Source: Aciditerrimonas ferrireducens
GTDB taxonomy: Bacteria; Actinomycetota; Acidimicrobiia; Acidimicrobiales; UBA8190
DNA length: 64,000 nt
Reading direction: 5' to 3'
Assembly (NCBI RefSeq): GCF_023130475.1
Contig: NZ_JAKHEX010000014.1
Coordinates: forward strand, 1-64,000
Shown: positions 12,045 through 29,412 of the stretch, piece by piece
Position numbering within the stretch: position 1 is the first letter of the stretch
How the letters are laid out: the number at the start of each line of letters is the position of its first letter
The notes under the pieces: generated by a model
Database searches by the model: none
Told to the model about the DNA's origin: nothing
The model's input: the letters and a program-made list of their open reading frames with translations, nothing else
Position numbers and translations under genes: made by a program

Positions 12045-12082
12045 TTGGCAGGCTGCTAGGGATGACTATAATCATGGTCATG
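12045..12082 (+). promoter_or_regulatory. Promoter and operator of the toxin-antitoxin pair
   Basis: TTGGCA (12045-12050) and TATAAT (12067-12072) are separated by 16 bp, the best sigma-70-like promoter in the window. The ATG at 12080 starts 7 nt after the -10, so the mRNA is probably leaderless. The 20 bp from 12062 to 12081 form an imperfect palindrome (16 of 20 positions) over the -10, a natural site for autorepression by the antitoxin. Confidence 0.65.
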
Positions 12083-12352: not shown

Positions 12353-12624
12353 GCCCCCCGTCCTACCGGGTGGTCGTGAGCGCGAGCGCTGAGCGCGCCC
12401 TCGCTCGCCTCCCCGAAGGCGTGGCCGCCGCCATCGTCGAGTTCGTGCTTGGAGCACTCGCCGACTCCCCCCGCCGGGTCGGCCACCCGCTTCGTCAGGA
12501 ACTGACTGGCCTGTGGTCGGCTCGTCGAGGCTCGTATCGGGTCGTCTACGAGATCGACGAAGACCACCACCAGGTCGCCGTCGTGCGGATCGACCACCGG
12601 GCTGACGTGTACCGACCCCGCTGA
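12349..12624 (+). CDS. RelE/ParE-family toxin
   Basis: A 91-residue RelE-type toxin; members usually cut mRNA on the ribosome. The fold is visible in YRVVVSASAERALARLP, then HPLRQELTGLWSARRGSYRVVYEID and VVRIDHRADVY, which carry the conserved L..LWS.R.G.YRV.Y signature and the catalytic arginines. It overlaps its antitoxin by 4 nt. Both genes look intact, in contrast to the decayed pair that follows. Confidence 0.85.
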   Translation: MSPPSYRVVVSASAERALARLPEGVAAAIVEFVLGALADSPRRVGHPLRQELTGLWSARRGSYRVVYEIDEDHHQVAVVRIDHRADVYRPR

Positions 12625-12799
12625 CGGTTGCCGAACGTGGACTGGACCGTTGGTGATGGGGCCAGCGGCGCCCCGCGTCCAGTCGTCGAGAATTCGCTCG
12701 CTGACCAGGATTTCCCCGATGGAGGCGGGCAGCCGGGTGGTCTCGGCGCACCCGGACCAAGTCACACTCCTGATTGCGTACCAGTGGGAGTACGACGGT

Positions 12800-13012
12800 G
12801 CGAAGGTCAGCGCCAGCCTGCCCGACGAAGACGTGGAGTTACTCGACGCTTACGCCCGAGATCAAGGTCTGCCGTAGAGGTCGGCAGCGCCGTACAAGGC
12901 AGTTCGCCTCCTGCGACGCGCCGAGATCGCGCCGGCCGACGAGGACGCGTTCGTCTCCTGGGAGAAATCCGAGGAGGGACGCGACCAGGACGCCGCGACC
13001 GGCGACGCTCTC
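12800..13012 (+). pseudogene. Decayed RHH-type (MazE/CcdA-like) antitoxin
   Basis: The frame reads AKVSASLPDEDVELLDAYARDQGLP, then TAG at 12875-12877, then RSAAPYKAVRLLRRAEIAP and an acidic tail. Without the stop this is a normal ribbon-helix-helix antitoxin, where a serine (TCG) would be expected in place of the TAG. There is no usable start codon directly before AKVSAS. The gene therefore carries a nonsense codon and a lost start. Confidence 0.65.
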
Positions 13013-13039
13013 TCACCGACCCTCGGCGGCAAGATCCGG

Positions 13040-13118
13040 ATGGTGAACCTTGCACGGTCATCGGGGCGGAGGCCAACACCTCCCGGCCGGCGATCGTGGT
13101 GAGCATCGCCGAAGCTAG
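13040..13118 (+). pseudogene. MazF-like toxin remnant, cut by the IS element
   Basis: MVNL in one frame is followed by TVIGAEANTSRPAIVVSIAEA in another, which is the start of a MazF/PemK toxin with a frameshift between the two. The homology ends at the CTAG where the IS begins, and no remainder of MazF is seen on the other side of the IS. Confidence 0.6.
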
Positions 13119-14809
13119 CCCCGATCTTTCACAGGGCGGAGCTGGCTGAGGCCTCTTGGTCCGCGAATGCGCCCTCCTGGTAGGCGAGACTGCGCTTGTC
13201 GAAGGCAGCAGGACCGCAACCAGGAGGGCACTTCCGTGGTGAACGCTACCAGCACGGTCCCGGTGAGGGTGGAAGGCGGCGGGGACCAGGTCGTGGCCCA
13301 TGTCGGGCTGCACGCACTGGGCTGTTTCGCTGACCGGCTCGGGTTGGGCGAGGCCGTCTCGGAGGCGGTCGTGGCTGGCGGCGATCAGGGGGTGCTGGTC
13401 CATGACCGGGGCGAGGTGTTGACCCAGATGATGCTGGTGCTCGCCGGGGGCGGCGAGTGCTGCGCGGACATCTGGTACCTGCGCTCTCAGCTGGGCCTGT
13501 TCGGGCCGGTGCCGTCGGACTCGACGGTGTGGCGGACCTTCGAGCGGATCGACTCGGTCACCCTCGGTTATCGCCGCCAGGCGGCGGGGGCGGTCCGTTC
13601 CTAGGTGTGGGCTCGTTCGGCGGCCACGACCAGAACCGCAGCGGTGACCCTGGACCTGGACGCGTCGCTGGTGGAGATCCACTCGGAGCACAAGGACGGG
13701 ACCGGCCCGACCTACAAGGGCGGGTTCGGGTTCCACCCGATGTTCTGCTTCGCTGATGCCACCGGGGAGGCCCTGTCGGGACTGTTGCGCCCGGGTAACG
13801 CTGTGGCCAACTCGATCGAGGACCACCTGGCGGTCCTCGACACGGCGATCGACCAGCTCCCCGCCTGGGTCGCTGCCGGCCACCGGCCCGGCGACGACCC
13901 GTCTAGCGTGGCCCGAGCGCTGCGGGTCCGGGCCGACTCGGCCGCCTGCTCGGCCACCCTGGCCGCCGGGTTCTGGGAACGCAACGTCGGCTTCTTGGTG
14001 ACCGCCCGCTCCAGTCGGGCCATCGCCGCCGCGATCAGCCGGGTCGTCGACGACGGCGAGACCGCCGGCTGGGTCCCCGCCCTCGGACAAGACGGCAACC
14101 AGCGCGACCGCGCCGCGGTCATCGAGGTCACCGACCTGGTCGACCTGTCGGGCTGGCCGGCGGGCACCCGGCTGATCGTGCGCCGCGAGCCGCTCCACCC
14201 CGGCGCCCAGACCAGCCTGTTCCCCTCCCTGGAGTTCCGCTACTGGGGCCACTACACCGACCAAGCCGGCGACCCCGCCGTCTTGGACGCCGACATGCGA
14301 GCCCACGCCCATGTCGAGGACCACATCCGCCGACTGAAAGCTTCCGGCCTCGAACGGTTCCCCTTCGCCAACCTCGACGCCAACCGGGCATGGATGGCCT
14401 CCGTGTGCCTCGCCGCCGACCTCGTCCGCTGGTTCCAGCTGCTCTGCCTCACCGGCCCCATAGCCGCCGCCGAACCCAAGACACTGCGCTGGGCGCTGTG
14501 GCACACCCCCGGCCGCCTCGTCCGCCTCGCCCGCCGCCACGTCGTCCGGCTCCTCGAGCACTGGCCCACCACCCCCGACCTGCTCGACGCCTACGGACGC
14601 ATCGCCACCATCACCTGAACCACCGAGCACACCCGGACCCGCGGCGCAGCTGTCATTCAGCGCGCCCCGACCTCGCCCGGCGGGCCCCGCACCGCCCCTC
14701 ACGTCAACCCAGCCGCCCCGAACACAACCGCAAGCGTCGCCGCAGCCCCCTCGCGGCGTCGGATCACACCAACCCCAGAGCCACCCCAGGGCAGGACGAA
14801 AGATCGGGG
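13119..14809 (+). mobile_element. IS1380-like insertion sequence
   Basis: A 1,691-bp element bounded by perfect 12-bp inverted repeats, CCCCGATCTTTC (13119-13130) and its complement (14798-14809). The flanking CTAG at 13115-13118 and 14810-14813 fits a 4-bp target duplication. It carries a single transposase gene with an internal stop. Size, repeat start and transposase type fit the IS1380 family. It sits at the end of a MazF remnant on the left and at the cut 5' end of a recombinase on the right. Confidence 0.85.
13236..14618 (+). pseudogene. IS1380-type DDE transposase with internal TAG
   Basis: Start GTG 13236 follows AGGAGGG at good distance. The frame covers the usual IS1380 features: VSEAVVAGGDQGVLVHDRGEVLTQMM, DSTVWRTFERID, then TLDLDASLVEIHSEHK with catalytic Asp, KGGFGFHPMFCF, and EHRIRRLK-like text near EDHIRRLKASG. 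TAG at 13602-13604 interrupts it between VRS and VWARSAATT; the frame is the same on both sides, so a single base change (for example AAG to TAG) explains the break. The element should not be able to move by itself. Confidence 0.8.
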
Positions 14810-14813
14810 CTAG

Positions 14814-15484
14814 GACTGCCGAGCCGGGCAAGACGAGAGCTGCGGGTGCTCACGCCAGGGGAGGTCGAGCTGCTGGCCGGAACGGTCGAGAAGCTGGGCT
14901 GCCCCACCGGCGCGCTGGTGGTACGCCTGGCCGCCTGGACGGGCCTCCGAGCTGGCGAGCTGGCCGGTCTGCGGGTGGGGCGGGTGGACCTGGACCACAG
15001 AGTCCTGACCGTGGTCGAGGCGGTAGCCGACGTGGACGGGCGGCTCGTGGCAGGAACGACCAAGACCGGCCGGGTCCGCACCGTGCCCATCCCCGATGGG
15101 CTGGTGCCACTACTGCGGCAGCAGGTCGAGGGGAAGGCGGCCACCGAGCTGGTCTTCCAAGGGCCCCGAGGCGGCCCCTGGCGGCACTCCTGGTTCTACC
15201 CCCGCTACTTCCGTCCGGCCTGTGAGCGGATCGGGCGGCCTGACCTTCGGTTCCACGACCTGCGCCACACCTACGCCTCCTGGCTGCTCGGACAGGGCAT
15301 CCACCCTCGGACCGCCATGGAGCTGCTGGGCCACAGCTCGATCCAGGTGACCATGGACGTCTACTCCCACCTCATGCCAGACGCCGTAGGACACGTGCGG
15401 GGGCGACTGGACGCCCTGTGGCCCGACACAAAGTGGCACGGTAGTGGCACGCTCGAAAGGGCCGGAGCGGAGTTAGAGCTTTGA
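14814..15484 (+). pseudogene. 5'-truncated tyrosine recombinase/integrase
   Basis: Only the catalytic domain of a phage-type integrase remains, about 220 residues. All active-site positions are visible: Arg in TGLRAGEL, Lys in TKTGRVRTVPI, HDLRHTYAS, LLGHSSIQVT and Tyr in DVYSHL. The N-terminal DNA-binding domain is missing: the frame meets the IS border and what lies left of the IS is a MazF remnant. GTG at 14846 might still start a short protein. It ends 26 nt from tRNA-Arg, the likely original target. Confidence 0.75.
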
Positions 15485-15496
15485 AACGCCTCTGAC

Positions 15497-15512
15497 CTGG
15501 GCATTTGCAGCG
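15497..15512 (+). repeat. Right 16-bp direct repeat, possible attachment site
   Basis: CTGGGCATTTGCAGCG, one mismatch from 11904-11919. It overlaps the last two bases of the tRNA-Arg gene and lies just downstream of the integrase remnant, as expected for an att site. Confidence 0.4.
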
Positions 15513-15584
15513 CGCTCGGAGGGACTCGAACCCCCAACCTTCTGATCCGTAGTCAGATGCTCTGTCCAATTGAGCTACGAGCGC
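15511..15584 (-). tRNA. tRNA-Arg (ACG)
   Basis: A complete 74-nt cloverleaf: acceptor GCGCTCG/CGAGCGC, discriminator G, D arm AGCTCAATTGGACAGAGC, anticodon loop CTACGGA with ACG, T loop GTTCGAGTC. CCA is not encoded. Its 3' end faces the integrase remnant and one copy of the 16-bp repeat. A -10-like TAGGAT lies at 15630-15625 on the minus strand. Confidence 0.95.
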
Positions 15585-15605
15585 CGGTGGACCTGGTGGC
15601 TCGGG

Positions 15606-15649
15606 GCCCCCAGGCACCTGGTGGATCCTAGCGGAGCGGTCCTGGGGGC
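15606..15649 (-). terminator. Inverted repeat after tldE
   Basis: GCCCCCAGG (15606-15614) and CCTGGGGGC (15641-15649) form a perfect 9-bp stem across 26 nt. It follows the tldE stop on the minus strand and precedes the tRNA-Arg gene. No T run follows, so the role is uncertain. Confidence 0.4.
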
Positions 15650-15676
15650 TTCGCCCGGCTCGGCCCGCCGCGCCGC

Positions 15677-17116
15677 TCAGGTGGCGGGGCTGACCGAGGA
15701 GCAGTTGAAGTCGGGGACGAGGAGGGGGGGCATGGCGGTGCGGGGGAACCACTCGTGCCACTCCCGGGAGAGGGCCCGGCGGGTGGCCCCGACGGCCTGG
15801 GCCCGGCGGAGGATCTCGAGGGGGCTCTCGTTGAAGCGGTAGTTGCCGACCGCCCCGACGACCTCCCCGCCTTCGACGAGGTAGACGCCGTCGCGGGTGA
15901 GGCCGGTGAGCAGGAGGGTCTGGGGGTCGACCTCCCGGATGTACCACAGGCAGGTGAGGAGCAGGCCCCGGTCGAGCCCCCGGACGAGGTCCTCGGTGAT
16001 GCCCTCGGCCCCGGGGAGTTCGAGGACCAGGTTGTCGACGGGCGGGCTGACGGGCAGGCCGAGGCGGGCGGCGCCGGCCCGGTGGGCCCGGAGGCGGCGC
16101 AGGGTTCCCGCTTCGAGCCAGGCGGTGGGGCCGAGGGGCAGGCCGTTGTCGAAGACCGAGACGTCGGGGCCCGAGGCCGAGGTGGCCACGAACGGGGCGC
16201 AGGCCAGGCCGGGCTCGGCCGGGTCGGAGCGAAGGGTGAAGGGGAGCGGGGTGAGCTGCTCGCCCAGCCGGGTGCCCCCGCCGGGGGCCGAGAAGACGCT
16301 GCGGCCCTCGACGGCGTCCTGGGCAACGGCGGCCTCCCCGAGGAGGCAGACGAGGTCGGCGACGGCGTCGGGGGGCAGGACCGTGGGGTAGCGGCCGGCC
16401 GGCAGCTCGACCCGGCGCGCCGCCCAGCGGAGGCGGCGGTCGATCTCGGCGAGCATGCCGGGCAGGTCGAGGGTCCGCAGGTCCTCGGCGCCGCGGCCCA
16501 CCCAGCTGGAGGCCTGGCCGTCGGCGGTCCGGCCGACCACCTGGGCGGTGCCGGTGGGTTGGGCGAAGCGCCGGCGGGCCCCGGCGGAGGTGCCGAGGAC
16601 CAGGGTGTCGACGGTGTGCTCGAGGTAGCCCGAGAGCACCAGGCCGCGAGCCTCGGCCTCGGCGAGAGCCGGTCCGAGGTCGGCGAGGAGGGGGGCGAGG
16701 ACCTCCGGCCCGGTCTCCTCCGGGGGCTCCTCGAGGCCCGGGTCGCTCGGCCCGGCCACCAGCTCGGCGGCGTCCTCGGCTGGGGGGGCCTCGGCCGCCC
16801 GGGCCAGGGCCGTCGCCACGAGCTGGTCGAGCTGGTCGGCCCGACCCCGGCCGACCCCCCCGGCCACCGCCACCCCGGCGGCGAGCCCCTCGGGGCGTGG
16901 GTCGAGGACCACGACGGTCACCGAGCGTCGGCGGCGGCGGCCGTTGGTGGTGAGGGTGCCGTTGGCGAAGCGGGCCTCGACCCCAGCGTGGTCGTTCACC
17001 AGGACGACGCCCCCGTGGGGCAGCCGGGCGAGGACCTGCTCGACGAGGCTGGCCGCCGGCACCTCGGCCTCGGCCGCCCAGTCCTCGGGGCCCGGCACCG
17101 GCCGGTCGGCGCTCAC
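15677..17116 (-). CDS. tldE: TldE/PmbA-type metalloprotease subunit
   Basis: A 479-residue TldE/PmbA family protein, the partner of TldD. It has the family's glycine-rich middle (LVLELPGAEGITEDLVRGLDRGLLLTCLWYIREVDPQTLLLTGLTRDGVYLVEGGEVVGAVGNYRFNESP, here seen as conserved blocks) and lacks the HExxxH metal motif, as expected for TldE. GTG at 17116 overlaps the tldD stop (GTGA). TldD/TldE complexes break down peptides and mature some modified peptides; no precursor peptide gene is visible nearby. The long open frame upstream of 17116 is a shadow of tldD. Confidence 0.85.
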   Translation of the reverse strand: MSADRPVPGPEDWAAEAEVPAASLVEQVLARLPHGGVVLVNDHAGVEARFANGTLTTNGRRRRRSVTVVVLDPRPEGLAAGVAVAGGVGRGRADQLDQLVATALARAAEAPPAEDAAELVAGPSDPGLEEPPEETGPEVLAPLLADLGPALAEAEARGLVLSGYLEHTVDTLVLGTSAGARRRFAQPTGTAQVVGRTADGQASSWVGRGAEDLRTLDLPGMLAEIDRRLRWAARRVELPAGRYPTVLPPDAVADLVCLLGEAAVAQDAVEGRSVFSAPGGGTRLGEQLTPLPFTLRSDPAEPGLACAPFVATSASGPDVSVFDNGLPLGPTAWLEAGTLRRLRAHRAGAARLGLPVSPPVDNLVLELPGAEGITEDLVRGLDRGLLLTCLWYIREVDPQTLLLTGLTRDGVYLVEGGEVVGAVGNYRFNESPLEILRRAQAVGATRRALSREWHEWFPRTAMPPLLVPDFNCSSVSPAT

Positions 17117-19616: not shown

Positions 19617-20441
19617 CTAGAGCCCGAGGTGGTCCGCCTCCCAGAGCCGCACCCCGCCGGTGATCCCGGCGCTGTTGTCCACCAGGGTCACGTCCGGGCC
19701 CAGGTCCCCCTCCTCGAGGTGCGCGGCGTTGCCCCCGCCGACGTAGCAGTGGTCGAAGAGGGTCAGGGTGCGCATGGCGGCCAGGGCCTTGCGGACCCGC
19801 TTGCGCCACTTCTTCGTGCCGATGGCCTCCCGGGCGTGCTCGCCGAGGTGCTCGGTGTAGGTCTCGCCCTTGCGGAACGGGATCTGGGCCACCTCCAGGT
19901 GCGGGAGGAGGCGCCCTTCGAAGAAGAGGGCGGTGCCGAAGCCCGTGCCCAGGGTGACGACCAGCTCGAGCCCTTGGCCCCGGACGACGGCCGCCCCCTG
20001 GACGTCGGCGTCGTTGGCCACCTTCGTCGGCACCCCCAGGCGCTTTGCGAGGGCCTGGGCCAGGTCGAAGCGGTCCCAGGCCCGTGCCAGGTCGGGATCG
20101 ACCGGGGTGCCGGGCCCCCCGGTCCGGACGAAGTGGGGGGCGCTCAGCACGACCCCCTGGCGGACCATGCCGGGGAAGCCGGCCGAGGCCCGATCGGCCC
20201 GGGGCAGCTCGTCGGCCAGGTGGGCCAGCTCCTCGACCAGCTGCTCGGGTCGGAGCGGGTAGGGGGTGTCCTCCCGGACCCGCTCGGCCACCATGGCCCC
20301 CGCGGCGTCGAGCACCGAGGCCTTGAGGCCGGTCCCGCCGATGTCCAAGCCGAGGGTCAGGGGCCCGCCGCCCGGTCGCTCGCCGCCGGGCCCGTGGCTG
20401 TTCGACCCGTGCCCCGGCTCCTGCCCGTGGTCCTCGCTCAC
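19617..20441 (-). CDS. ppgK: Polyphosphate glucokinase (ROK family)
   Basis: A 274-residue ROK kinase that phosphorylates glucose with polyphosphate (and often ATP). LGLDIGGTGLKASVLD is the phosphate-binding loop; NDADVQGAA holds the catalytic Asp region; TLGTGFGTALF and the lysine-rich GTKKWRKRVRKAL are typical of PPGK. A Gly/His/Pro-rich tail of about 28 residues precedes the fold. The start GTG 20441 follows GGAGGAGG and overlaps the bluB stop by 4 nt. It would feed glucose from trehalose or glycogen breakdown into glycolysis. Confidence 0.88.
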   Translation of the reverse strand: MSEDHGQEPGHGSNSHGPGGERPGGGPLTLGLDIGGTGLKASVLDAAGAMVAERVREDTPYPLRPEQLVEELAHLADELPRADRASAGFPGMVRQGVVLSAPHFVRTGGPGTPVDPDLARAWDRFDLAQALAKRLGVPTKVANDADVQGAAVVRGQGLELVVTLGTGFGTALFFEGRLLPHLEVAQIPFRKGETYTEHLGEHAREAIGTKKWRKRVRKALAAMRTLTLFDHCYVGGGNAAHLEEGDLGPDVTLVDNSAGITGGVRLWEADHLGL

Positions 20442-21196
20442 CGCGATCCTCCTCCCTCGGCCCGCTCGAGCGGCCCTCCCCCGGCCCGGGCCTCGTCCGC
20501 CCCGTCCCCGATGGCACCCCCGAGCCGACCGCCGGGCCCGCTGGCCAGGAGGCCGCCGTGGTGGCCCCAGGTCTCCTCGTGGAGGACGGCCTCCAGGGGC
20601 AGGCGGTGGCGCCAGCCGTGGCGTTCGAGGTCCGGGACGGCCTGGAGGGCCCGGACCGGCCCCACGCAGAGCCAGGCGACCGGCCGGACCTCGGCGGGGA
20701 TGCCGAGGAGGTCCCGGAGGAAGGCCTCCCGGTAGAAGGAGACCCAGCCCAGGCCCCAGCCCTCGGCGGTGCAGGCCAGCCAGAGGTTCTCGATGGCCAG
20801 GCAGGTCGAGTAGAGGCCGGTGTCGGCGATGGCGTGGCGGCCGAGCACCGCCGGGGCCCCGCGGGCCGGGTCGTAGGTGACGACCAGCCCGAGGCTGGAC
20901 TCCCGGATCCCGTCGATCTTGATCCGGGCGAAGCGCTCCGCCTGGGGGCCTTCGAGCTGGCTGGCGAAGACGGCCCGCTCGGCCTGGACGTGCTCGAAGA
21001 AGCGCTGCCGGATGGCCGGGTCGCTGACCACGACGAAGTCCCAGGGCTGGGAGAGCCCGACGCTCGGGGCGCTGTGGGCGGCCGCCAGGACCCGGCCGAG
21101 GACCGCCGGGTCGACCGGCTCGCCGGTGAACTCGGCTCGGACGTCCCGGCGGCGAAAGAGGGTCTCGTAGAAGTCGACGGTCGGCCGGCCCTCCAT
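20438..21196 (-). CDS. bluB: 5,6-Dimethylbenzimidazole synthase (BluB)
   Basis: A 252-residue flavin protein of the nitroreductase fold that cuts reduced FMN to form the lower ligand of vitamin B12. BluB signatures are FRRRDVRAEF, HSAPSVGLSQPWDF and ENLWLACTAEGWGLGWVSFY; the last 35 residues are a Gly/Ala-rich tail. ATG at 21196 has no Shine-Dalgarno but a TAGCGT hexamer 8 nt before it, whose TAG is the stop codon of the upstream coupling-protein gene. No other cobalamin gene is in the window. It overlaps ppgK by 4 nt. Confidence 0.9.
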   Translation of the reverse strand: MEGRPTVDFYETLFRRRDVRAEFTGEPVDPAVLGRVLAAAHSAPSVGLSQPWDFVVVSDPAIRQRFFEHVQAERAVFASQLEGPQAERFARIKIDGIRESSLGLVVTYDPARGAPAVLGRHAIADTGLYSTCLAIENLWLACTAEGWGLGWVSFYREAFLRDLLGIPAEVRPVAWLCVGPVRALQAVPDLERHGWRHRLPLEAVLHEETWGHHGGLLASGPGGRLGGAIGDGADEARAGGGPLERAEGGGSR

Positions 21197-21204
21197 GGCT
21201 GACC

Positions 21205-21210
21205 ACGCTA
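21205..21210 (-). promoter_or_regulatory. -10 element of bluB inside the upstream stop
   Basis: TAGCGT on the minus strand, 8 nt before the bluB ATG. It overlaps the TAG stop of the coupling-protein gene, so bluB-ppgK could be expressed apart from the secretion genes. Confidence 0.4.
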
Positions 21211-22686
21211 GCGGGGCTCCTCGTCCCCGGGTCGGGCGAGGCGACGGAGCTCGGGGTCGTCGAACCAGGGGACCAGGCGCACCCGGCAGGGCTGGCGGGA
21301 CCCGACGATCAAGAGCCCCTGGCGGGTCGGCAAGCGGCGGAGGGCGTCGGGGGGCAGGAGGCGCTGGCGCTGGGGGACCTGGGCGGTGCCGACCCGGCCC
21401 TGGGCGTCCCGGCTCACGGTCCGGCTGGGCCGCTCCACGTCCCCGGCCAGCGAGCTGGCGTGCTCCAAGGTGGCGGGGTCGGCGATGCCGGGCAGGAAGA
21501 GACGGGCTCGGTGGTTGTTGAGGACGGTGCCGGCCCGAGGGCCGTAGCGGGCCTGGAGCTGGGCCAGGTCCTGCCAGACGGTCACCAACTGGATGCCGTG
21601 GGCGGCGACGGTGGCGGCGAGGACGTCGAGGTCGGCGAGGGGTGCGACGTTGGCCGCCTCGTCCACGACGACCAGCAGGGGCGGGTCGAGGGGCCGGCCG
21701 TGGCGTTCGGCCCGGTCGACCGCCCCCGCCAGCACCTCGCCGAGCAGGGCGGCGAAGAGCGGCCGGAGGCGCTCTTGGTGGTGGGCGGGCGCGCAGAGGA
21801 ACAGGCTGTCGCACCCGGCGCTCAGCGCTGCGGGGTCCAGGGGCGGGCCGCCCGGCCCCTCGGCGAGGCCCGGCTCGGCGTAGGCCTCGAGGACGAGCTC
21901 GGCGGTGGCCAGGACGGCCGACCGCTGCCGGTCGTCCCGTCCCCAGCACGCCCGAAGGGCCTGCAGCGCAGGCCAAGCCCCGGCGGCGTCGAGCAGGGCC
22001 CCGGGCTCCTCCGCCTCCTGGGTCTCGAGCCACCGCAGCACCTCGGTCACCGGCAGCCCACCGAGGGCGGCGGCGTGGAGGAGGGGCCCGAGGAGCTTGG
22101 CCGCCTGCTGGTACCAGAAGTCCCCGTCCCGGAGGTCCCCGGCGCGGCTACGGGCCACGCTGGCCAGCGCCGAGGCCAGCCGGCGGGCCCCGGCCCAGCT
22201 GGTCGCCCCGTCGACCGGGGTCCAGCCGACCGGTTCGGCCCCGTCGGCCCACAGCCCGGGCCCGGCCACCTGGACCGGGTCGTAGAGGAACACGCGGCCG
22301 AGCCGGCGCCGGGCCTGGAGGGAGGCGCGGACCAGGTCGGCCTTCACGGAGGCGGCCACCACCGGGCCGGGCCAGCGCAGCAGGGCGGGTACGACCAGCC
22401 CGCTGGTCTTGTGGCTCTGGGTCGGGCCCACCACGGCCAGGGCCTGCCCGGGCTCGAGGCAGACCAGCCGGCCGCGGGCCCGCCCGACCACCACCCGACC
22501 GGGGACCGGCCGGCGGACCGCCAGGCCCGCGAGGTCCGCCCGCTTTGCCCAGCGGGTCGGCGCCTCGGCCCTGGTCCGCCCCCGCCATGACCGGCCGGCG
22601 CCCCCTGGAGTACCCCGCAACGAGCGGTCCCCGAGGAGGACCGCGCCGAGGGCCCCGAGGGCCCAGAGGCTCTGGGGCGGGGCCAT
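21208..22686 (-). CDS. VirD4/TraG-type coupling ATPase
   Basis: A 492-residue type IV coupling protein, which in conjugation brings DNA or protein to the channel. Walker A is GPTQSHKT (residues 87-94), with His where Gly is usual; Walker B is LLVVVDEAANVAPL; TVWQDLAQLQARYG and LFLPGIADPATLEHASSLAG are typical TraG/VirD4 blocks. The N-terminal membrane part is very short. ATG at 22686 overlaps the stop of the VirB4-like gene (TGATG). It is the last of five linked secretion genes, 11 nt before bluB. Confidence 0.85.
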   Translation of the reverse strand: MAPPQSLWALGALGAVLLGDRSLRGTPGGAGRSWRGRTRAEAPTRWAKRADLAGLAVRRPVPGRVVVGRARGRLVCLEPGQALAVVGPTQSHKTSGLVVPALLRWPGPVVAASVKADLVRASLQARRRLGRVFLYDPVQVAGPGLWADGAEPVGWTPVDGATSWAGARRLASALASVARSRAGDLRDGDFWYQQAAKLLGPLLHAAALGGLPVTEVLRWLETQEAEEPGALLDAAGAWPALQALRACWGRDDRQRSAVLATAELVLEAYAEPGLAEGPGGPPLDPAALSAGCDSLFLCAPAHHQERLRPLFAALLGEVLAGAVDRAERHGRPLDPPLLVVVDEAANVAPLADLDVLAATVAAHGIQLVTVWQDLAQLQARYGPRAGTVLNNHRARLFLPGIADPATLEHASSLAGDVERPSRTVSRDAQGRVGTAQVPQRQRLLPPDALRRLPTRQGLLIVGSRQPCRVRLVPWFDDPELRRLARPGDEEPR

Positions 22687-23945
22687 CAGCGACCAGCGCC
22701 GGAGGCGGCGGACGTGGGGGCGGCGGGCATGGCGGCGTCGGTGCCGACCACGGGCCCGTCGGCGGGCCCAAGCAGGTGCTGGACCACCAGAGATCGACCG
22801 CCGACCTTCCAGAGGGCCCGGCCACGGCCCAGGTGCGGGACGAGGCGGGCCTCGGTCGAGGACAGGCCGAGTAGCTCGCGGGCGGCGGCCAGCTCGCCGG
22901 GGGCCTGGGCGTAGACGACGCGGGTCTCCGAGTCGGCGAGCAGGCCGAGGGCCAGGCGCTCGTGCTCGGGACCGCCCGCGCCGAGGAGGTCCGACACCCG
23001 GTGGAGGACGGCCACGTGGGCCACGCCTCGGGCCCGGGCCAGCTTCCAGGTGGCCTGCAGCCACCGGGCCACCCCGAGGTCGGCGAGCACCGCCCAGGCC
23101 TCGTCGACCACGAGCACCACCCCGCCGTCGACCGTGGGCAGCTGGGCTTCCAGCCAGGCGGTGGCCAGCACCATGGCCGGGCCGAGGGCCGCCGATCGGA
23201 ACAGCGCCGAGACGTCGAGGACCACGCAGGGCCCCTGCAGGTCCAGGCCCGCCGAGGTCGGGCCGTCGAAGAGGCCCCGGAGGTCCCCGTCGACCAGCCG
23301 GTGCAGCTCGAGGGCGACCGCCCGCCCCTCGGCCGCCAACCCCCCGGGGTCCGTCCCGACCCGCGCCGCCGCCTCGGCCGTCGGGGCGAGCAGGGCGGCG
23401 ACCACCCCCGGCAGGGTCGGGACCGCCTCGCGCCGGCCCCGCTCCTCGACGGCGAGGGCCAGCGCCGCTCGCTCCTGTGGCGAGAGGGCCCGGCCCAAGG
23501 TGGCTTCGGCCACTGCCCCGATCAGGGCGGCCCGGCGCTGGTCCTCGCCCCGGGGGTCCCCGTCGTCGCCCTTCGGGGCGTCGAGGGGGTTCAGCCGCAC
23601 CGTGCCGGCGGGCCGGAGCCGGATCGGCCGGGCCCCGAGGGCCTCGGCCAGCGGCCCGTACTCGCCCTTCGGGTCCACCACCCAGGCCCGCCGACCGAAG
23701 ACGGCCAGCCGCCAGAGCAGGGTCTTCACCAGGGCGCTCTTCCCCCGACCCAGTTGGCCGAAGACCACGACGTTCGGGTTGGTCACGAGGCCCTGGCGGT
23801 AGCAGGCGAAGGGGTCGAAGCAGAACGGCTGGCCCCCGTGGTCCCGGCCGATCAGTGGCCCCGGCACCCCGAGGGGCTGGCCGAGCCCGAAGGGGTAGAG
23901 AGCACCGAGATGCCGGGTGGTGGCCTCGTGGGCGGCGCGGCTCAC
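22686..23945 (-). CDS. VirB4/TraC-like conjugation ATPase
   Basis: A 419-residue ATPase that powers type IV secretion. Walker A is GQLGRGKS (63-70) after NPNVVVFGQ, followed by VVDPKGEYGPLAEALG, and Walker B is VVLVVDEAWAVL with the arginine-finger region ARGVAHVAVLHRVSDL. It lacks the long N-terminal domain of proteobacterial VirB4; in actinobacteria that part is often encoded by the SCO6880-like gene next door, as here. GTG at 23945 lies 13 nt after that gene's stop. The coding stretch upstream of 23945 in this frame is not conserved-looking. Confidence 0.82.
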   Translation of the reverse strand: MSRAAHEATTRHLGALYPFGLGQPLGVPGPLIGRDHGGQPFCFDPFACYRQGLVTNPNVVVFGQLGRGKSALVKTLLWRLAVFGRRAWVVDPKGEYGPLAEALGARPIRLRPAGTVRLNPLDAPKGDDGDPRGEDQRRAALIGAVAEATLGRALSPQERAALALAVEERGRREAVPTLPGVVAALLAPTAEAAARVGTDPGGLAAEGRAVALELHRLVDGDLRGLFDGPTSAGLDLQGPCVVLDVSALFRSAALGPAMVLATAWLEAQLPTVDGGVVLVVDEAWAVLADLGVARWLQATWKLARARGVAHVAVLHRVSDLLGAGGPEHERLALGLLADSETRVVYAQAPGELAAARELLGLSSTEARLVPHLGRGRALWKVGGRSLVVQHLLGPADGPVVGTDAAMPAAPTSAASGAGR

Positions 23946-23958
23946 CGTCGATCCCCGC

Positions 23959-25443
23959 TCAGGGCAGGCCGTCGCCGGTCGGCCAGGTCGCCAGCCACGC
24001 CTCGAGCTGGTCGCCGTAGCAGCGGCGCAGCTCGAGGCCTGTCCGGGCGGCTCGCTGCTCGAGCTCCTCGGCGGCCGCCTCCAGGGCAGGCCGGTCATCG
24101 GCGCAGATGGTCAGGTACCCGGCGAAACGGCAGGCGGCGTGGCCCTCCGCCAGCTCCCGCTCGCGGTCCCAGACGGCCTGCTCCTCTCGCCGCCGCCGGG
24201 CGGTGCGCAGGAACCCGCTCCGCTGGCGCAGCTCGGCGTCGGCCAGGTCCGCGGTGCGGGCCCGCTCGGCTTGTCGACGGGCCTCGGTGGGGCCGAGGGG
24301 GGCCAGGACCACCACCAGGCGCTGCCGCCAGCGGCTCGGCACCAGGAGCGGGACGAGGAACCCGGCCGGGACGGCCTGGCGAGGCCACTCGGCGACCCAC
24401 CAAGTGGCCTGCCAGGTGCCGTCGGTCCGCAGGCAGTCCCAGTCGGCCCGCACGGCGTCCGGCCAGGGCCACCCGGTCGCCGCCCCCGCTCGGTCGTCGC
24501 TGGATGGCCGGCTGGTCCCCGCCAGCCACCGGGCCAGCGCCGCCCGGTCCAGGGGTGGACCCGGTCGGGCCCCGGCCTCGGCGAGGCGCTCCCGCAGGGC
24601 GTCCAGCTCGCGGGCCAGGCGTGCCAGGGCCTCCTGGGTCCCGTCCCGGGCGCCGAGGAGGCCGCCGAGCCAGGACCCGAGGTGGCGGGCCTGGCTCCGG
24701 ACGCTGACCGCCAGGTGGACCTCGTGGCGGACCAGCGTCGGCGCCCAGCTGGCCACCAGGGCCCGGTAGGCCTCGGCCGGCCCTTCGCGCTCTTCACCGG
24801 CGTGCCCTGCCGTGCGGCCCGGCGGCGCACCTGGCTCGGCCACGTCGGTGCGGCAGAGCCGGGCCAGGTCGGCTCGGGACAGGGGTCCGCAGCTGGCGAG
24901 CCACTGGAGCCGGTGGACCCCGCCGAGGTCTCGGCCGGCCGCGCCCAGGACCCGGGCCCAGCGGGCGACCTGCTGGTCCTGCTCCTCGGGCCCCCGGAGC
25001 ACCAGGCCGTCCCCCTCGACCGGAAGAACGACGCTCAGCACGCCGCGGGCACGGTCGACCACCACGCCCACCCGGTCCGCCCGCCCGGGGGACCGGCCCG
25101 GCGCTTGGGTCTCGGCTAGGGCGAAACGTCGGCCGAGGTCGGCCCGGGGCCGCCATCCCCGCAGGCGCCCGGCCGCGTGGCGCAGCGCGTCGGGGGCCCA
25201 CTCCTCGGCGGTCCGACCGGCCAGGGGCACGGTGCCCGCCGCAGCGCCGAGCCCGAGCAGGCCCAGAGCACCCACCACACCGGGCAGGGCCGGGTCCGCT
25301 CGGAGGACCGTCACGGCGAGGAGCGCGCCGAGGCCGAGGGCCGCGAGCTGCCCACCCCGGAACCCCGCGACCAGGCCCCGGCGGCTGAGCGGACCGAACC
25401 AGTACCGCTGGCCGCCCCCGTCCGCTCGGGCGTCCTCAGCCAT
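23959..25443 (-). CDS. SCO6880-family conjugation protein
   Basis: A 494-residue protein of the family named after Streptomyces SCO6880. YWFGPLSRRGLVAGFRGGQL leads into two N-terminal transmembrane segments (about residues 30-70), then RTAEEWAPDALRHAAGRL and a large soluble part similar to the N-terminal domain of VirB4/TraC. It has no Walker motif, so it probably works together with the separate ATPase. ATG 25443 overlaps the end of the preceding TrbL-like gene by 8 nt. No biochemical role is firmly known for the family. Confidence 0.75.
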   Translation of the reverse strand: MAEDARADGGGQRYWFGPLSRRGLVAGFRGGQLAALGLGALLAVTVLRADPALPGVVGALGLLGLGAAAGTVPLAGRTAEEWAPDALRHAAGRLRGWRPRADLGRRFALAETQAPGRSPGRADRVGVVVDRARGVLSVVLPVEGDGLVLRGPEEQDQQVARWARVLGAAGRDLGGVHRLQWLASCGPLSRADLARLCRTDVAEPGAPPGRTAGHAGEEREGPAEAYRALVASWAPTLVRHEVHLAVSVRSQARHLGSWLGGLLGARDGTQEALARLARELDALRERLAEAGARPGPPLDRAALARWLAGTSRPSSDDRAGAATGWPWPDAVRADWDCLRTDGTWQATWWVAEWPRQAVPAGFLVPLLVPSRWRQRLVVVLAPLGPTEARRQAERARTADLADAELRQRSGFLRTARRRREEQAVWDRERELAEGHAACRFAGYLTICADDRPALEAAAEELEQRAARTGLELRRCYGDQLEAWLATWPTGDGLP

Positions 25444-26803
25444 CGTCGAGTCCTTCCTCCTGGACCTGCCGCTCAGCCGCCCGCTCCGCGGCGATCTCGG
25501 CGGCCACGGCCGCGTCGAGGTCCACCCCTCGGAGCTCGCCCGCCTCGACCCGGGCGAGGGCCCGTTCGTAGCGGGCCACCAGGACCGGGTCGACGACCAG
25601 GGGTGGCTGGAACGGCACCTCGCCCCGCTCGTCGTCCCCGACGGCCGGCACCGGGGGGACGCTGCTCGGGTCCGCCGTAGACCCGAGCGAGGCCCCCGGC
25701 CCCGCCAGGCTGGGGCCACCCGGACTGGGACCGCCCGCATCGGGACCACCCGGACGGGGACCATCCGCATCGGGATCCGGCGGGCCGCCGCCACTGGCGC
25801 CATCGCTCCCGGGATCGCCGAGCTCCTCGCCGATCGCGGGACCCGGACCGAACCCCTCGGTCCCCAGGGGGTCGGCGGGACCGTGGAAGGTCTCCCAGAG
25901 GTCCAGGCCGGTGGCGGCCAGCCGGCGGGGCGCGCCGGTGGCGCGACGGAGGTGGTGCCGGGCCTGCTCGAGCTGGGCCACGGCGCCGGCCTCGACCACC
26001 GGCACGAGGCGCAGGAGGGTGAAGGGCGCGGCCGCCGCCACCACCAGCAACGCTGCCCCGCTCACCAGGGCCCCGAACCCGTCGCCGGCGCTGAACGCCA
26101 AGCCGTGGGCCATGGCCTCGGTGGCCAGGGCCAACGCACCGACGATCACGAGCTTGGCCAGGACCAGGGCGGCCAACGTCTCCGCCAGGCGCCGGCACCA
26201 GTGGGCCAGGGCCGGCCAGACGGTGGTCGCGAGGATCAGGGGCAAGAACAAGACGGCCAGGGTGACCGCGGCCGCCCGGACCGCCATTTCCAGCCAAAGG
26301 GCCAGGCCGGCGACCGCCACCACCACGGCGCCGAGCAGCACCGCGAAGCTCGGCGCAGCACCGAGCACCCCGGCCCCGAGCGCCTGGGCCACGGGGGCGA
26401 CGCTGCGGGCCGGGGTGGTGCCCGAGGCGGTGAGCAGCTGCTGGCAGAGGCCGTCGACCACGACCAGGCCCAGCTGCACCAGCGCAACGGCCGTCCCGGT
26501 GCCGGCCAGCGCAAAGGGCAGGTGGACCACCACCGCCCGGAGCAGCAGGCCGGGCTGCTGGGAGAGGACCGCCTGGATCGCGGCGCAGCACGCCAGCGGC
26601 ACGGCCAGGGCTGCAGCGGCTGCGGCCACGACCCCCAGCTGCTCGTGGAACCAGGCCGTCGAGAGGGGCGGCGCGGTGGTGGCCGAGACCACGGCCACCA
26701 CCTGGGCCAGGATCCAACTGGCCCCCTCGGCGACCCATCGGCCAGCCAGGTCGAAGACCCCAGCAGCCCCCAGGCCGAGCAGCCCGCCGGCCCCTGGGCT
26801 CAC
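25436..26803 (-). CDS. TrbL/VirB6-like polytopic membrane protein
   Basis: A 455-residue protein with six to eight hydrophobic segments in residues 15-290 (for example VVAAAAAALAVPLACCAAI and LAVLFLPLILATTVW), then a long cytoplasmic or exposed tail rich in Gly, Pro and Asp with GGP repeats, and a charged C-terminus. This is the layout of the SCO6881/TrbL-type channel protein of actinobacterial conjugation systems. GTG 26803 overlaps the pilin-like gene's stop (GTGA). The tail contains a 15-bp tandem repeat at 25713-25772. Confidence 0.72.
   Translation of the reverse strand: MSPGAGGLLGLGAAGVFDLAGRWVAEGASWILAQVVAVVSATTAPPLSTAWFHEQLGVVAAAAAALAVPLACCAAIQAVLSQQPGLLLRAVVVHLPFALAGTGTAVALVQLGLVVVDGLCQQLLTASGTTPARSVAPVAQALGAGVLGAAPSFAVLLGAVVVAVAGLALWLEMAVRAAAVTLAVLFLPLILATTVWPALAHWCRRLAETLAALVLAKLVIVGALALATEAMAHGLAFSAGDGFGALVSGAALLVVAAAAPFTLLRLVPVVEAGAVAQLEQARHHLRRATGAPRRLAATGLDLWETFHGPADPLGTEGFGPGPAIGEELGDPGSDGASGGGPPDPDADGPRPGGPDAGGPSPGGPSLAGPGASLGSTADPSSVPPVPAVGDDERGEVPFQPPLVVDPVLVARYERALARVEAGELRGVDLDAAVAAEIAAERAAERQVQEEGLDDG
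25713..25772. repeat. 15-bp tandem repeat in the TrbL-like gene
   Basis: Four imperfect 15-bp units of the type GGACC(A/G)CCCG(C/G)A(T/C)CG encode a five-residue repeat ending in GGP in the tail of the channel protein. Unit number may differ between strains. Confidence 0.6.
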
Positions 26804-27105
26804 CGCACCCCCTGACCGGCGTGGAAGAAGAAGTTCACGATGGCCGGGGCTGCCCCCACCAGAAGGGCGGCCAGGGCCGAGACCAGGACGACCCGGCGGC
26901 CGACCAGCGACTGGTGGAAGTTCTGCGAGTGGGCGCCGAGCGCCCACGCCGCGGCACCGACCACCAGGCCGGCCACGGCCAGGACCAGGGCCCAGCCGGC
27001 CAGCCCGTTCGTGACCTGCTGGAGGACGTTGCTCCCCGGCAGGTCGCCGGGCGTGGGGGTGAGGCTGACGTCGGCCAGGAGGCCGACCAGGGTGACGACG
27101 GGCAC
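26800..27105 (-). CDS. DUF6112-type small membrane protein (VirB2/pilin-like)
   Basis: A 101-residue protein with two transmembrane helices, LAGWALVLAVAGLVVGAAAWALG and VVLVSALAALLVGAAPAIVNFF, joined by the short basic loop HSQNFHQSLVGRR. This is the DUF6112 family found next to SCO6880-like genes; its size and topology resemble VirB2/TrbC pilin subunits. GTG 27105 is chosen for GAGGAG just upstream; the open frame to 27222 is an Arg/Pro-rich artefact. First gene of the five-gene secretion run. Confidence 0.7.
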   Translation of the reverse strand: MPVVTLVGLLADVSLTPTPGDLPGSNVLQQVTNGLAGWALVLAVAGLVVGAAAWALGAHSQNFHQSLVGRRVVLVSALAALLVGAAPAIVNFFFHAGQGVR

Positions 27106-27388
27106 AGGTGCTCCTCGGACGAGCGAGGGGTCGAGGCCAGCGAGGCGTCGCGCGAGCGGCGAGCTGCGGCGAGAGGGCCAAATCCGGCGGGCACGCGGCG
27201 GCCGAGAGGGAGCACCGGCCACGGGGAGCCGCCGGCACCGAGGCGACCCTCACCCTAGCAGACCTTTCGTTGGCTGCAAGGGTCTTTCGATGCCCTCCAT
27301 GTCGACGCCGGGGTCGCGGAGCGGACAGCCCGGCCGGGGTCGCCCGGGGGTCACCCGGGGGGCACCGAGGGCCTGTCATGCTGGGGGC
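27106..27388. other. Divergent intergenic region
   Basis: No gene is evident between the secretion genes and the sensor kinase. A near-palindrome (AGACCTTT ... AAGGGTCT, 27260-27285) overlaps CTTTCG repeated 20 bp apart (27264 and 27284), which could be a regulator site. The first 120 bases are GC-rich with no clear signal. Confidence 0.35.
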
Positions 27389-28651
27389 ATGCTCGGGGCC
27401 AGCCTGCCCATGGCCGAGGCGATCGGCGGCATGGCCGGTGTGGCCGCCGTCGGCGTCCTCGCCGCCGTGGCCGCCCATGCCGCCGGCCGGCGCGCCGGCC
27501 GGGGCAGCTTGGAGCAGCGCTTGGCCGCACTGGCCGCCCGCCTCGGCGTGGACCTCCCCGAGGGCGGTGGGGTCGAGCCGACCCTGCAGCAGCTCGAGCA
27601 GGTCACCGACCGGGCAGCGGAGACGGTCGCCGAGTCCTCGGCCGAGGCCATCCGGCTCCGGCGGGCCCTCGACACCTTGCCGCAGGGGGTCATCGTCTGC
27701 GACGAGACCGGCGAGGTGGTGTTCCGGAACGCGCGGGCGGTGGGGCTCATGGGTGGCCGCCACGGCGACGCCTTGGCCGCCCAGGCGGTGGTGGACCTCC
27801 TGGCGCTGGCCTGGCAGCAGGGTTCGGCCGAACGGACCCTGGACCTCTACGGCCCGCCCCGGCGGACCCTGGCGGTGCGGACCCAGCTGCTGGACGACGG
27901 CCGGCGGACCCTCGGCGTGGCCGCGGTCATCGACGACGTCTCGGAGCGGCGGCGCCTGGAGGAGATACGGCGGGACTTCGTGGCCAACGTGAGCCACGAG
28001 CTCAAGACCCCGATGGGCGCCCTGGGTCTGCTGGCCGAGACCCTGGTGGCCGAGGAGGACCCCCAGGTCGTTCGGCGGCTGGCCAGTCGGATCCAGGACG
28101 AGGCCTTCCGGGTGAGCCGGATCATCGACGACCTGCTGGACCTCTCCCGGATCGAGGCCGAGGAGGCCCCGCCCCGGGAGCCGGTGCCGATCGGGCTGGT
28201 CATGGCCGAGGCCCTGGAGCGGGTCCGGGCCGCGGCCGAGCAGCGGGCAGTGAAGATCGAGGTGGAGGAGCCCGACCCGCCGGTCGCCGTGGTGGCCGAG
28301 CGTCGGCAGCTGGTCTCGGCCCTCTACAACCTGCTGGAGAACGCCGTGAAGTACTCCTACGAGGGCGGTTTGGTGCGCTTCAGCGGGACGGTCCACGATG
28401 GCGAGGTGGTCTTCGCCGTGGCCGACCAGGGCATCGGGATCCCGGCCCGGGAGCTCGAACGGATCTTCGAACGTTTCTACCGGGTCGAGAAGGGCCGCAG
28501 CCGCCAAACCGGGGGGACGGGTCTCGGGCTGTCGATCGTGCGGCACGTGGCAGCCAACCACCAGGGTCGGGTGGAAGTGGAGTCCCGGGAAGGGGAGGGA
28601 TCGACCTTCCGCCTGGTGGTGCCGCTCGAGAGCGGGAGCCGCCGCTCGTGA
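27389..28651 (+). CDS. senX3: SenX3/PhoR-type sensor histidine kinase
   Basis: A 420-residue kinase. One transmembrane helix (about 12-32), a coil, a PAS-like domain (about 90-185), the H box FVANVSHELKTPMG with phospho-acceptor His203, then the N box ENAVKYS, G1 DQGIGIP and G2 GGTGLGLSIV. The single membrane helix and PAS layout match SenX3, which senses phosphate supply through the Pst system; no pst or phoU gene is in the window. ATG 27389 is the first start in the conserved region. The stop overlaps the response-regulator start (GTGA). Confidence 0.88.
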   Translation: MLGASLPMAEAIGGMAGVAAVGVLAAVAAHAAGRRAGRGSLEQRLAALAARLGVDLPEGGGVEPTLQQLEQVTDRAAETVAESSAEAIRLRRALDTLPQGVIVCDETGEVVFRNARAVGLMGGRHGDALAAQAVVDLLALAWQQGSAERTLDLYGPPRRTLAVRTQLLDDGRRTLGVAAVIDDVSERRRLEEIRRDFVANVSHELKTPMGALGLLAETLVAEEDPQVVRRLASRIQDEAFRVSRIIDDLLDLSRIEAEEAPPREPVPIGLVMAEALERVRAAAEQRAVKIEVEEPDPPVAVVAERRQLVSALYNLLENAVKYSYEGGLVRFSGTVHDGEVVFAVADQGIGIPARELERIFERFYRVEKGRSRQTGGTGLGLSIVRHVAANHQGRVEVESREGEGSTFRLVVPLESGSRRS

Positions 28652-29412
28652 GCTCGCCTCGACGAGCCGAGGGCGACCAGGTGCGGGTCCTGCTGGCCGA
28701 GGACGAGGAGAGCTTCGTCGAGGCCCTGGAGGTCGGCCTCGCTCGCGAAGGTTTCGAGGTGGTCGTGGCCCGGGACGGCACCGAGGCCCTGGCGTCCTTC
28801 GAGGAGACCCGTCCGGACCTCGTCCTCCTGGACGTGATGCTGCCCAAGCTCTCGGGCCTCGACGTCTGCCGGGCCATCCGGGCCCGTTCGACGGTCCCGA
28901 TCATCATGGTCACGGCGAAGAGCACCGAGATCGACACCGTGGTGGGCCTGGAGGTCGGGGCGGACGACTACGTGGCCAAGCCCTACCGCCTGCGGGAGCT
29001 GGTGGCCCGCATGCGGGCGGTCCTGCGCCGGGCACCGGGGTCCGGGGAGGCCCGGGAAGCGCCGGCCGGCAACGGACCCGAGGTCGTGGCGGAGGACCCC
29101 GACGACCAAGTGCTGGAGGTCGGCGAGGTGACCCTGGACGTGGCCCGGCACCGGGTCTGGGTGCGCGGCCAGGAGGTCCAGCTGCGGCGCAAGGAGTTCG
29201 ACCTGCTGACCCTGTTGATGGAGAACGCCGGGCGGGTGCTGACCCGGGAGGTCCTCATCGACCGGGTCTGGGGCTCGGACTACGTCGGGGACACGAAGAC
29301 CTTGGACGTCCACATCAAACGGCTCCGCAGCCGCATCGAGGAGCAGCCGTCGACGCCGCGCTGGATCGTGACGGTGCGCGGCGTGGGCTACCGCTTCGAA
29401 CGGCCCCACTGA
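28648..29412 (+). CDS. regX3: RegX3-type response regulator (OmpR/PhoB class)
   Basis: A 254-residue regulator. The receiver domain (13-130) has acidic AEDEE, phospho-acceptor Asp62 in LVLLDVMLPKLSG and the conserved Lys in VAKPYRLREL; a 30-residue linker follows; the winged helix (about 150-250) has RRKEFDLLTLLMENAG and DTKTLDVHIKRLRSRIE. GTG 28648 is coupled to the kinase; GTG 28681 would give a start (VRVLLAED) closer to homologues. It is expected to control phosphate-starvation genes when phosphorylated by the upstream kinase. Confidence 0.88.
   Translation: MSSPRRAEGDQVRVLLAEDEESFVEALEVGLAREGFEVVVARDGTEALASFEETRPDLVLLDVMLPKLSGLDVCRAIRARSTVPIIMVTAKSTEIDTVVGLEVGADDYVAKPYRLRELVARMRAVLRRAPGSGEAREAPAGNGPEVVAEDPDDQVLEVGEVTLDVARHRVWVRGQEVQLRRKEFDLLTLLMENAGRVLTREVLIDRVWGSDYVGDTKTLDVHIKRLRSRIEEQPSTPRWIVTVRGVGYRFERPH

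What the first reader, a model, noticed from the sequence alone, without database searches (positions are those of the whole stretch)
21208..27105. Orphan five-gene type IV secretion locus without a relaxase
A tight minus-strand run encodes a DUF6112 pilin-like protein, a TrbL-like channel protein, an SCO6880-like protein, a VirB4-like ATPase and a VirD4/TraG coupling ATPase. No relaxase, integrase, replication gene or origin of transfer is visible next to it. Established: these families occur together in actinobacterial conjugative elements. Inference: a domesticated machine that moves DNA or protein across the membrane, located between bluB-ppgK and a phosphate-type two-component pair. This is the best candidate in the window for an undescribed system.
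Basis: partly seen in the sequence, partly recalled or inferred. Interest (0 to 1): 0.72.

Follow-up and report, generated by a model that had tools for sequence, protein, structure and literature searches.

The report
Scattered chromosomal DNA-transfer machine in Acidimicrobiales
The five genes are the channel part of a conjugation-type DNA-transfer machine that a group of soil actinobacteria have fixed in their chromosomes, and its DNA-nicking enzyme, which seemed to be missing, is kept at a separate conserved place, so these bacteria may own a permanent system for exporting or exchanging chromosomal DNA.

Summary
In detail: 21208-27105 (-) holds five intact, overlapping genes (DUF6112/TrbC-like pilin, SCO6881/TrbL-like, SCO6880-family, VirB4 ATPase, VirD4). 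The 'orphan without a relaxase' reading is only half right. The locus is not mobile: it sits between serS-PhoB/PhoR and bluB/ppgK in many Acidimicrobiales, and VirB4 has diverged as much as seryl-tRNA synthetase. But the same genome encodes a MobF/TrwC relaxase on another contig, with the whole TrwC active site conserved. It lies next to pafBC in most relatives. A second VirD4-like ATPase (T4CP2) sits at a third conserved place. In related families relaxase and T4CP2 are neighbours (pafBC-relaxase-T4CP2-LmbE-cofC-gpsA); the window's family has split that locus. In 296 genomes of the class, all 34 with T4CP2 also have VirB4 and a TrwC-type relaxase. In several relatives relaxase and T4CP2 share a C-terminal tail. 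Three-fold 10-bp direct repeats precede the T4SS operon in most relatives. SCO6880 folds like the N-terminal half of VirB4, so VirB4 is split in two genes. Best reading: a vertically inherited, three-locus chromosomal conjugation-type system that moves chromosomal DNA. DNA transfer itself is inferred. A version occurs in cultured Acidimicrobium ferrooxidans.

The parts
26800..27105 (-). DUF6112 protein, TrbC/VirB2-pilin-like, first gene of the operon
   Evidence: PF19607 34.1 bits (cut-off 25), PF04956 TrbC 25.2 bits (cut-off 27.9); 61-69% identical in 8 orthologues
25436..26803 (-). SCO6881/TrbL-like (VirB6-like) polytopic membrane protein
   Evidence: NCBIfam SCO6881_fam E 8.8e-8, below its cut-off; orthologues 40-57% identical
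23959..25443 (-). SCO6880-family protein; predicted VirB3-like two-helix hairpin plus VirB4 N-terminal domain, without ATPase
   Evidence: NCBIfam 210 bits; AlphaFold2 pLDDT 81, pTM 0.81; the 14 best Foldseek hits are R388 TrwK/VirB4, E down to 6.8e-11
22686..23945 (-). VirB4 ATPase domain as a separate gene; Walker A GQLGRGKS, Walker B VVLVVDEA
   Evidence: PF12846; PDB 4ag5 VirB4 8e-13; matches only the C-terminal half of full VirB4 models
21208..22686 (-). VirD4/TraG coupling ATPase (T4CP1); P-loop GPTQSHKT lacks the usual Gly before Lys
   Evidence: PF02534 113 bits; alignment; P-loop survey
27252..27290 (-). Degenerate copy of the conserved operator, 10-bp direct repeats (WTGAAA-N4)x3 at 27290-27265 (12 of 18 here), with possible -10 TAGGGT at 27257-27252
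   Evidence: at least 14 of 18 in 50 of 85 relatives against 16 of 1700 control windows
27389..28651 (+). Divergent PhoR-like sensor kinase; its partner regulator is the candidate regulator of the operon
   Evidence: frame fixed; orthologues beside the T4SS in relatives
28648..29412 (+). PhoB/OmpR-type response regulator
   Evidence: PF00072, PF00486; divergent upstream of DUF6112 in 37 of 44 loci with room for it
20438..21196 (-). bluB, immediately downstream neighbour (context, not part of the machine)
   Evidence: TIGR02476 220 bits

Best explanation
This is the envelope-channel operon of a chromosomally fixed, vertically inherited conjugation-type system of Acidimicrobiales whose parts lie at three conserved places. 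Locus 1 (this window): pilin-like DUF6112, VirB6-like TrbL, VirB4 split into SCO6880 (VirB3-VirB4 N-half) and an ATPase gene, and VirD4. Locus 2: a relaxase-domain-only MobF (TrwC) protein next to pafBC. Locus 3: a second coupling ATPase, T4CP2. Proposed mechanism: the divergent PhoR/PhoB-like pair switches the channel operon on through 10-bp direct repeats; the MobF protein nicks a chromosomal site with its tyrosine and stays bound to the strand; it is recruited through a coupling ATPase and pumped out by VirB4/VirD4, sending chromosomal DNA to a neighbour cell or to the outside. Shown computationally: the parts, their intact motifs, fixed positions, vertical inheritance, co-occurrence, ancestral relaxase-T4CP2 adjacency, shared tails in some relatives. 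Inferred: joint assembly, regulation, nicking, DNA as substrate, direction of transport.
For: Synteny of locus 1 across the family and most named Acidimicrobiales loci and in family f5. serS-VirB4 distance correlation 0.53 (0 of 5000 permutations), mean divergence 0.30 and 0.31. Own-genome MobF relaxase: NCBIfam MobF 213 bits, PDB TrwC 1.4e-32; Y14, D79, H148, H159, H161 align with TrwC Y18, D85, H150, H161, H163; all five invariant in 12 family members, Tyr and the three His in 20. Relaxase next to pafBC in most f1 and f5 genomes. T4CP2 at a conserved place in f1, beside the relaxase in f5 and f14, contiguous pafBC-relaxase-T4CP2-LmbE-cofC-gpsA in G271. 34 of 34 genomes with T4CP2 have VirB4 and a relaxase; 22 of 22 with the short relaxase have both. 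Tail D-phi-G-phi-G in relaxase and T4CP2 of several f1 genomes. Operator. SCO6880 as VirB4 N-half. Version in A. ferrooxidans.
Against: No oriT was sought or found. No transfer experiment exists. VirB1, VirB8 and other parts were not searched for. VirD4 lacks the P-loop glycine in all nine f1 orthologues aligned and many others. In the window's own genome T4CP2 lacks the shared tail and the operator is degenerate (12 of 18). Co-occurrence tests are not corrected for phylogeny. The f1 genomes held are fragmentary. Streptomyces cmd genes, a related relaxase-less cluster, affect sporulation and did not change transfer of an SLP2-derived plasmid (PMC2782261), so a non-conjugative role is possible.
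Confidence: 0.6

Rival explanations
1. A Cmd-like envelope or developmental complex: the T4SS proteins were domesticated for cell differentiation, chromosome segregation or protein export, and the relaxase and T4CP2 are retained for another job such as DNA repair.
For: cmdABCDEF of Streptomyces (CmdB, C, D resemble SCO6878, SCO6880, SCO6881) has no relaxase reported in the cluster and affects aerial hyphae, sporulation and chromosome segregation (PMC2782261). Relaxase neighbours PafBC; T4CP2 precedes imuA'-imuB-dnaE2 in f1.
Against: This locus keeps VirD4, which the cmd paper does not report. Relaxase and T4CP2 co-occur with the T4SS (34 of 34), and a relaxase-like gene is adjacent to the T4SS in f17.
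Confidence: 0.2
2. DNA release or uptake rather than cell-to-cell transfer (compare gonococcal DNA secretion or Helicobacter ComB): same parts, with ssDNA exported to the medium or DNA taken up.
For: Same parts list; no mating-pair or surface-adhesion gene was noticed next to the operon.
Against: VirD4-type couplers and a relaxase point to export and not uptake; nothing separates release from transfer here.
Confidence: 0.12
3. An integrated conjugative element (ICE), intact or decaying.
For: ICE-like copies with full-size TrwC exist in some relatives, e.g. G008 C323 27-52 kb.
Against: Fixed neighbours, vertical inheritance, no integrase seen, intact frames, divergence like serS.
Confidence: 0.03
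4. A decaying relic.
For: Altered VirD4 P-loop; degenerate operator in the window.
Against: Five intact frames; presence throughout two families, including streamlined 1.4-2.3 Mb genomes; conserved active sites.
Confidence: 0.04

Closest known systems
cmdABCDEF (SCO4126-4131) of Streptomyces coelicolor, with SCO6871-6884 and SLP2.19-23
   Same: CmdB is VirB4-like; the paper says SCO6878, SCO6880 and SCO6881 highly resemble CmdB, C and D. The window has SCO6880-family and SCO6881-like genes in one operon with a VirB4-type ATPase. Chromosomal, no relaxase in the cluster as described.
   Different: The window's locus keeps VirD4 and a DUF6112 pilin, sits beside a PhoBR pair, and co-occurs with an unlinked MobF relaxase and a second coupler. 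Basis: PMC2782261 plus family models; the Streptomyces genes were not aligned here.
T4SS of Patescibacteria
   Same: Chromosomal monoderm T4SS conserved across a large group; most clusters lack a relaxase (PMC12102498).
   Different: There the authors infer a non-conjugative role and VirD4 is mostly distant from virB4; here a relaxase and couplers co-occur with the T4SS across families.
MobF/TrwC relaxases of conjugative plasmids (R388 TrwC)
   Same: Same relaxase domain and catalytic residues.
   Different: About 420 aa, no helicase domain, second Tyr pair missing, chromosomal and positionally conserved.
R388 TrwM/TrwK (VirB3/VirB4)
   Same: SCO6880 plus the next gene together match the parts of VirB4.
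   Different: Here VirB4 is encoded as two polypeptides, the first with a two-helix membrane hairpin.

Membership tests
Conjugative-type T4SS | VirB4 ATPase | tested here: met
   (split into two genes)
Conjugative-type T4SS | T4CP (VirD4) | tested here: met
   PF02534; second copy
Conjugative-type T4SS | Relaxase in the genome | tested here: met
   MobF; unlinked to the T4SS operon; PF03432 type absent
Conjugative-type T4SS | oriT and demonstrated transfer | not tested
   oriT not searched; transfer needs an experiment
Integrative conjugative element | integrase and attachment borders, variable position | tested here: not met
   conserved neighbours in the family and most related loci, no integrase found in the intervals inspected; borders not searched for as such
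MobF (TrwC) relaxase family | catalytic Tyr and three-His metal site | tested here: met
   invariant in alignments A6 and A7, mapped to TrwC
MobF (TrwC) relaxase family | C-terminal helicase in one chain | tested here: not met
   about 420 aa, only PF08751 found
SCO6880 family (NF042935) | score above the curated cut-off | tested here: met
   210 bits against 60
SCO6881 family (NF047967) | score above the curated cut-off | tested here: not met
   31.6 bits against 325: relative, not member
Streptomyces Cmd cluster | six-gene order cmdA-F without VirD4 | tested here: not met
   VirD4 present; gene set differs (PMC2782261)
CONJscan MPF class FA/FATA | class-specific profile set | not testable with these tools
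   CONJscan profiles not available

The most novel reading that the evidence does not exclude
An order of free-living actinobacteria carries a core-genome 'sexual' apparatus: a dedicated chromosomal relaxase, two coupling ATPases and a PhoBR-linked T4SS with a split VirB4 that transfer chromosomal DNA between cells for the host's benefit, possibly tied to DNA damage through PafBC.
Probability: 0.4. Interest if true: 0.88.

Novelty: new variant of a known kind. Interest (0 to 1): 0.72.

Why it matters
Conjugation is normally the property of plasmids and ICEs. A machine whose relaxase, couplers and channel are separate, vertically inherited chromosomal genes kept even in 1.4-2.3 Mb genomes would be a host-owned gene-exchange or DNA-export system in a large, mostly uncultured order. 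It gives a structural meaning to the SCO6880 family (VirB4 N-half), shows that calling a locus 'orphan T4SS without relaxase' from its neighbourhood can mislead, and offers a cultured test case in Acidimicrobium ferrooxidans.

Tried and rejected
ICE or plasmid integration: rejected by synteny. PF03432 relaxase: absent from the own genome. Extra substrates with the D-phi-G-phi-G tail: 11 pattern hits in 17 genomes, reversed control 0; seven are relaxase or T4CP2, one at a contig edge (L304) is unassigned, three are antisense non-genes. LexA and mycobacterial PafBC promoter motifs upstream of the loci: nothing consistent, so the DNA-damage link rests on neighbourhood only. T4CP2 beside imuA'-imuB-dnaE2: seen in f1 (and dnaE2 nearby in f17), not in f5 or f14, so possibly a result of locus splitting. 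The missing P-loop glycine in VirD4 as a universal signature: rejected, many orthologues have GKT. First idea that the GC pattern meant frameshifted pseudogenes: rejected. Literature: no paper found on this locus.
Full report
Observation. The window is bases 1-64000 of a 71-kb contig (G000 C6) of a 2.65-Mb, 85% complete genome. Five intact minus-strand ORFs fill 27105-21208 with overlapping or nearly touching ends, followed after 11 bp by bluB and then ppgK. No relaxase, integrase or transposase was found in the neighbourhood. The neighbours scanned are housekeeping genes (TldD, quinone oxidoreductase, ppgK, bluB, a PhoB-type regulator, serS, ctaB).

Taxon. Named relatives are Acidimicrobiales MAGs. 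These two identifications rest on length only.

Not mobile. In the window's family (f1, 17 genomes, 11 genera) every genome has a SCO6880-family gene, and where the contig allows, the operon lies between serS-PhoB/PhoR and bluB/ppgK, sometimes with ordinary metabolic genes such as a P450 or an amidase in between. In one family genome (G001) only an ICE-like copy was seen. The arrangement recurs in 80 named loci: PhoB divergent upstream in 37 of 44 loci with room for it, all five genes in 36 of 38, and in a second family f5. VirB4 distances follow serS distances (r = 0.53, 0 of 5000 permutations as high) with the same mean divergence, 0.31 and 0.30. This is vertical inheritance of a maintained gene.

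The relaxase exists. PF03432 finds nothing in the own genome, but PF08751 (TrwC) finds a gene at G000 C23 109,199-110,458 and genes in 15 of 17 family genomes. The own-genome protein is 420 aa, MobF family (213 bits, cut-off 100), E 1.4e-32 to TrwC in the PDB. Mapping one search gives Y14=Y18, D79=D85, H148=H150, H159=H161, H161=H163. All five are invariant in 12 family sequences; Tyr and the three His stay invariant across 20 sequences of three families. It has no helicase domain. Its place, between pafBC and a riboflavin synthase gene, recurs in the family. In f5 it also follows pafBC. Some family contigs are too short to show both neighbours.

A second coupler. PF02534 finds a second VirD4-like gene in most family genomes. 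In f1 it lies in a conserved context gpsA-cofC-LmbE-T4CP2-imuA'-imuB-dnaE2. In f5 and f14 it is next to the relaxase, and G271 shows pafBC-relaxase-T4CP2-LmbE-cofC-gpsA in one stretch. So f1 appears to have split an ancestral locus while keeping both genes. In family f17 a relaxase-like gene of about 500-860 aa lies directly divergent from DUF6112.

Co-occurrence. In 296 genomes of the class, VirB4 relatives occur in 53, T4CP2 (E <= 1e-100) in 34, TrwC-type relaxases in 80. All 34 T4CP2 genomes have VirB4 and a relaxase; all 22 with a short relaxase have VirB4 and T4CP2 (Fisher p below 1e-18, not corrected for phylogeny). The 34 span nine families. The short-relaxase list was compiled by hand from open-frame lengths; two further genomes (G023, G232) with frames of 526-533 aa and no VirB4 hit lie at or near contig ends and were left out.

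Two further links. (a) C-terminal tails: among 534 genes called in f1 loci, eight end in [DE]xG(phi)(G/A/D)..., all relaxase or T4CP2. A pattern search of 17 genomes (about 53 Mb) gave 11 hits, 0 for the reversed control. Seven are relaxase or T4CP2 (one confirmed by the riboflavin synthase gene next to it), one at a contig edge is unassigned, three are antisense non-genes. In f5 both proteins often end in Arg-rich tails. The own-genome T4CP2 lacks the tail. (b) A triple 10-bp direct repeat WTGAAA-N4 lies upstream of DUF6112: at least 14 of 18 positions in 50 of 85 loci against 16 of 1700 control windows. In nine f1 T4SS loci every hit of 15 or more is in that one intergenic region. Related sites stand upstream of the relaxase in the own genome (13 of 18) and in two sister genomes (15 of 18). 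The site is in the gap between the divergent PhoR/PhoB pair and the operon, as expected for an OmpR/PhoB-type regulator (inference). In the window it is degenerate (12 of 18). The motif was read off these same loci, so the count describes conservation and is not an independent test.

Split VirB4. The SCO6880-family protein (AlphaFold2, 45-sequence alignment, pLDDT 81, pTM 0.81) matches R388 TrwK/VirB4 in its 14 best PDB hits (E 7e-11 to 1e-7, about 390 columns, about 10% identity; the next hit is at 0.11). With two membrane helices at residues 30-71 it looks like VirB3 plus the VirB4 N-domain, while the next gene supplies the ATPase. The TM-scores (about 0.49 by query length) are moderate, so this is a fold match, not an identity.

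Mechanism and function. The parts list (nicking enzyme, couplers, VirB4 motor, channel and pilin-like proteins) is that of conjugation. Because all parts appear to be host genes at fixed places, the likely cargo is chromosomal DNA. I give 0.6 to the statement as a whole. Cell-to-cell transfer versus DNA release cannot be separated here. A Cmd-like developmental role is the main rival: the related Streptomyces cmd operon affects sporulation and chromosome segregation, and its deletion did not change transfer of an SLP2-derived plasmid (PMC2782261).

Prior knowledge. Relaxase-poor chromosomal T4SSs are described for Patescibacteria (PMC12102498) and the cmd operon for Streptomyces (PMC2782261). 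I found no paper on the Acidimicrobiales system or on an unlinked, co-conserved MobF relaxase; the library holds open-licence papers only.

Cultured test case. A. ferrooxidans (G030) has DUF6112 (also weakly PF18895 T4SS_pilin), SCO6880, VirB4 and VirD4 with a PhoB-type neighbour, a 683-aa TrwC-type protein with the Tyr pair and the HxH motif, and T4CP2. Its relaxase lies near ctaG, not directly beside pafBC.

Noticed in passing
21208-22686 (residues about 87-94 of VirD4): The P-loop glycine before the catalytic lysine is replaced (H, R, Q, Y, M or F) in all nine aligned f1 VirD4 orthologues and others, while the relaxase-linked T4CP2 keeps GK in the aligned copies.
   Followed up: partly
L260 (G000 C14) 9344-16123: In f1 the second coupler directly precedes imuA'-imuB-dnaE2 (error-prone repair cassette); the relaxase follows pafBC, a DNA-damage regulator in mycobacteria.
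   Followed up: partly
L037 and G008 C323 27-52 kb: An ICE-like second T4SS with a full-length TrwC lies about 25-30 kb from the fixed T4SS in this relative; similar copies in G001, G011, G012.
   Followed up: partly
L033 11992-12147: Partial VirB4 duplicate between SCO6880 and VirB4 in one relative (G012).
   Followed up: no
L223, L227, L228: In family f17 a TrwC-like gene (500-860 aa) is directly divergent from DUF6112, in place of PhoR.
   Followed up: partly
L156: A contig titled Granulicella sp. (bog_445) carries the locus with 52% VirB4 identity; probably a misnamed or mixed MAG.
   Followed up: no
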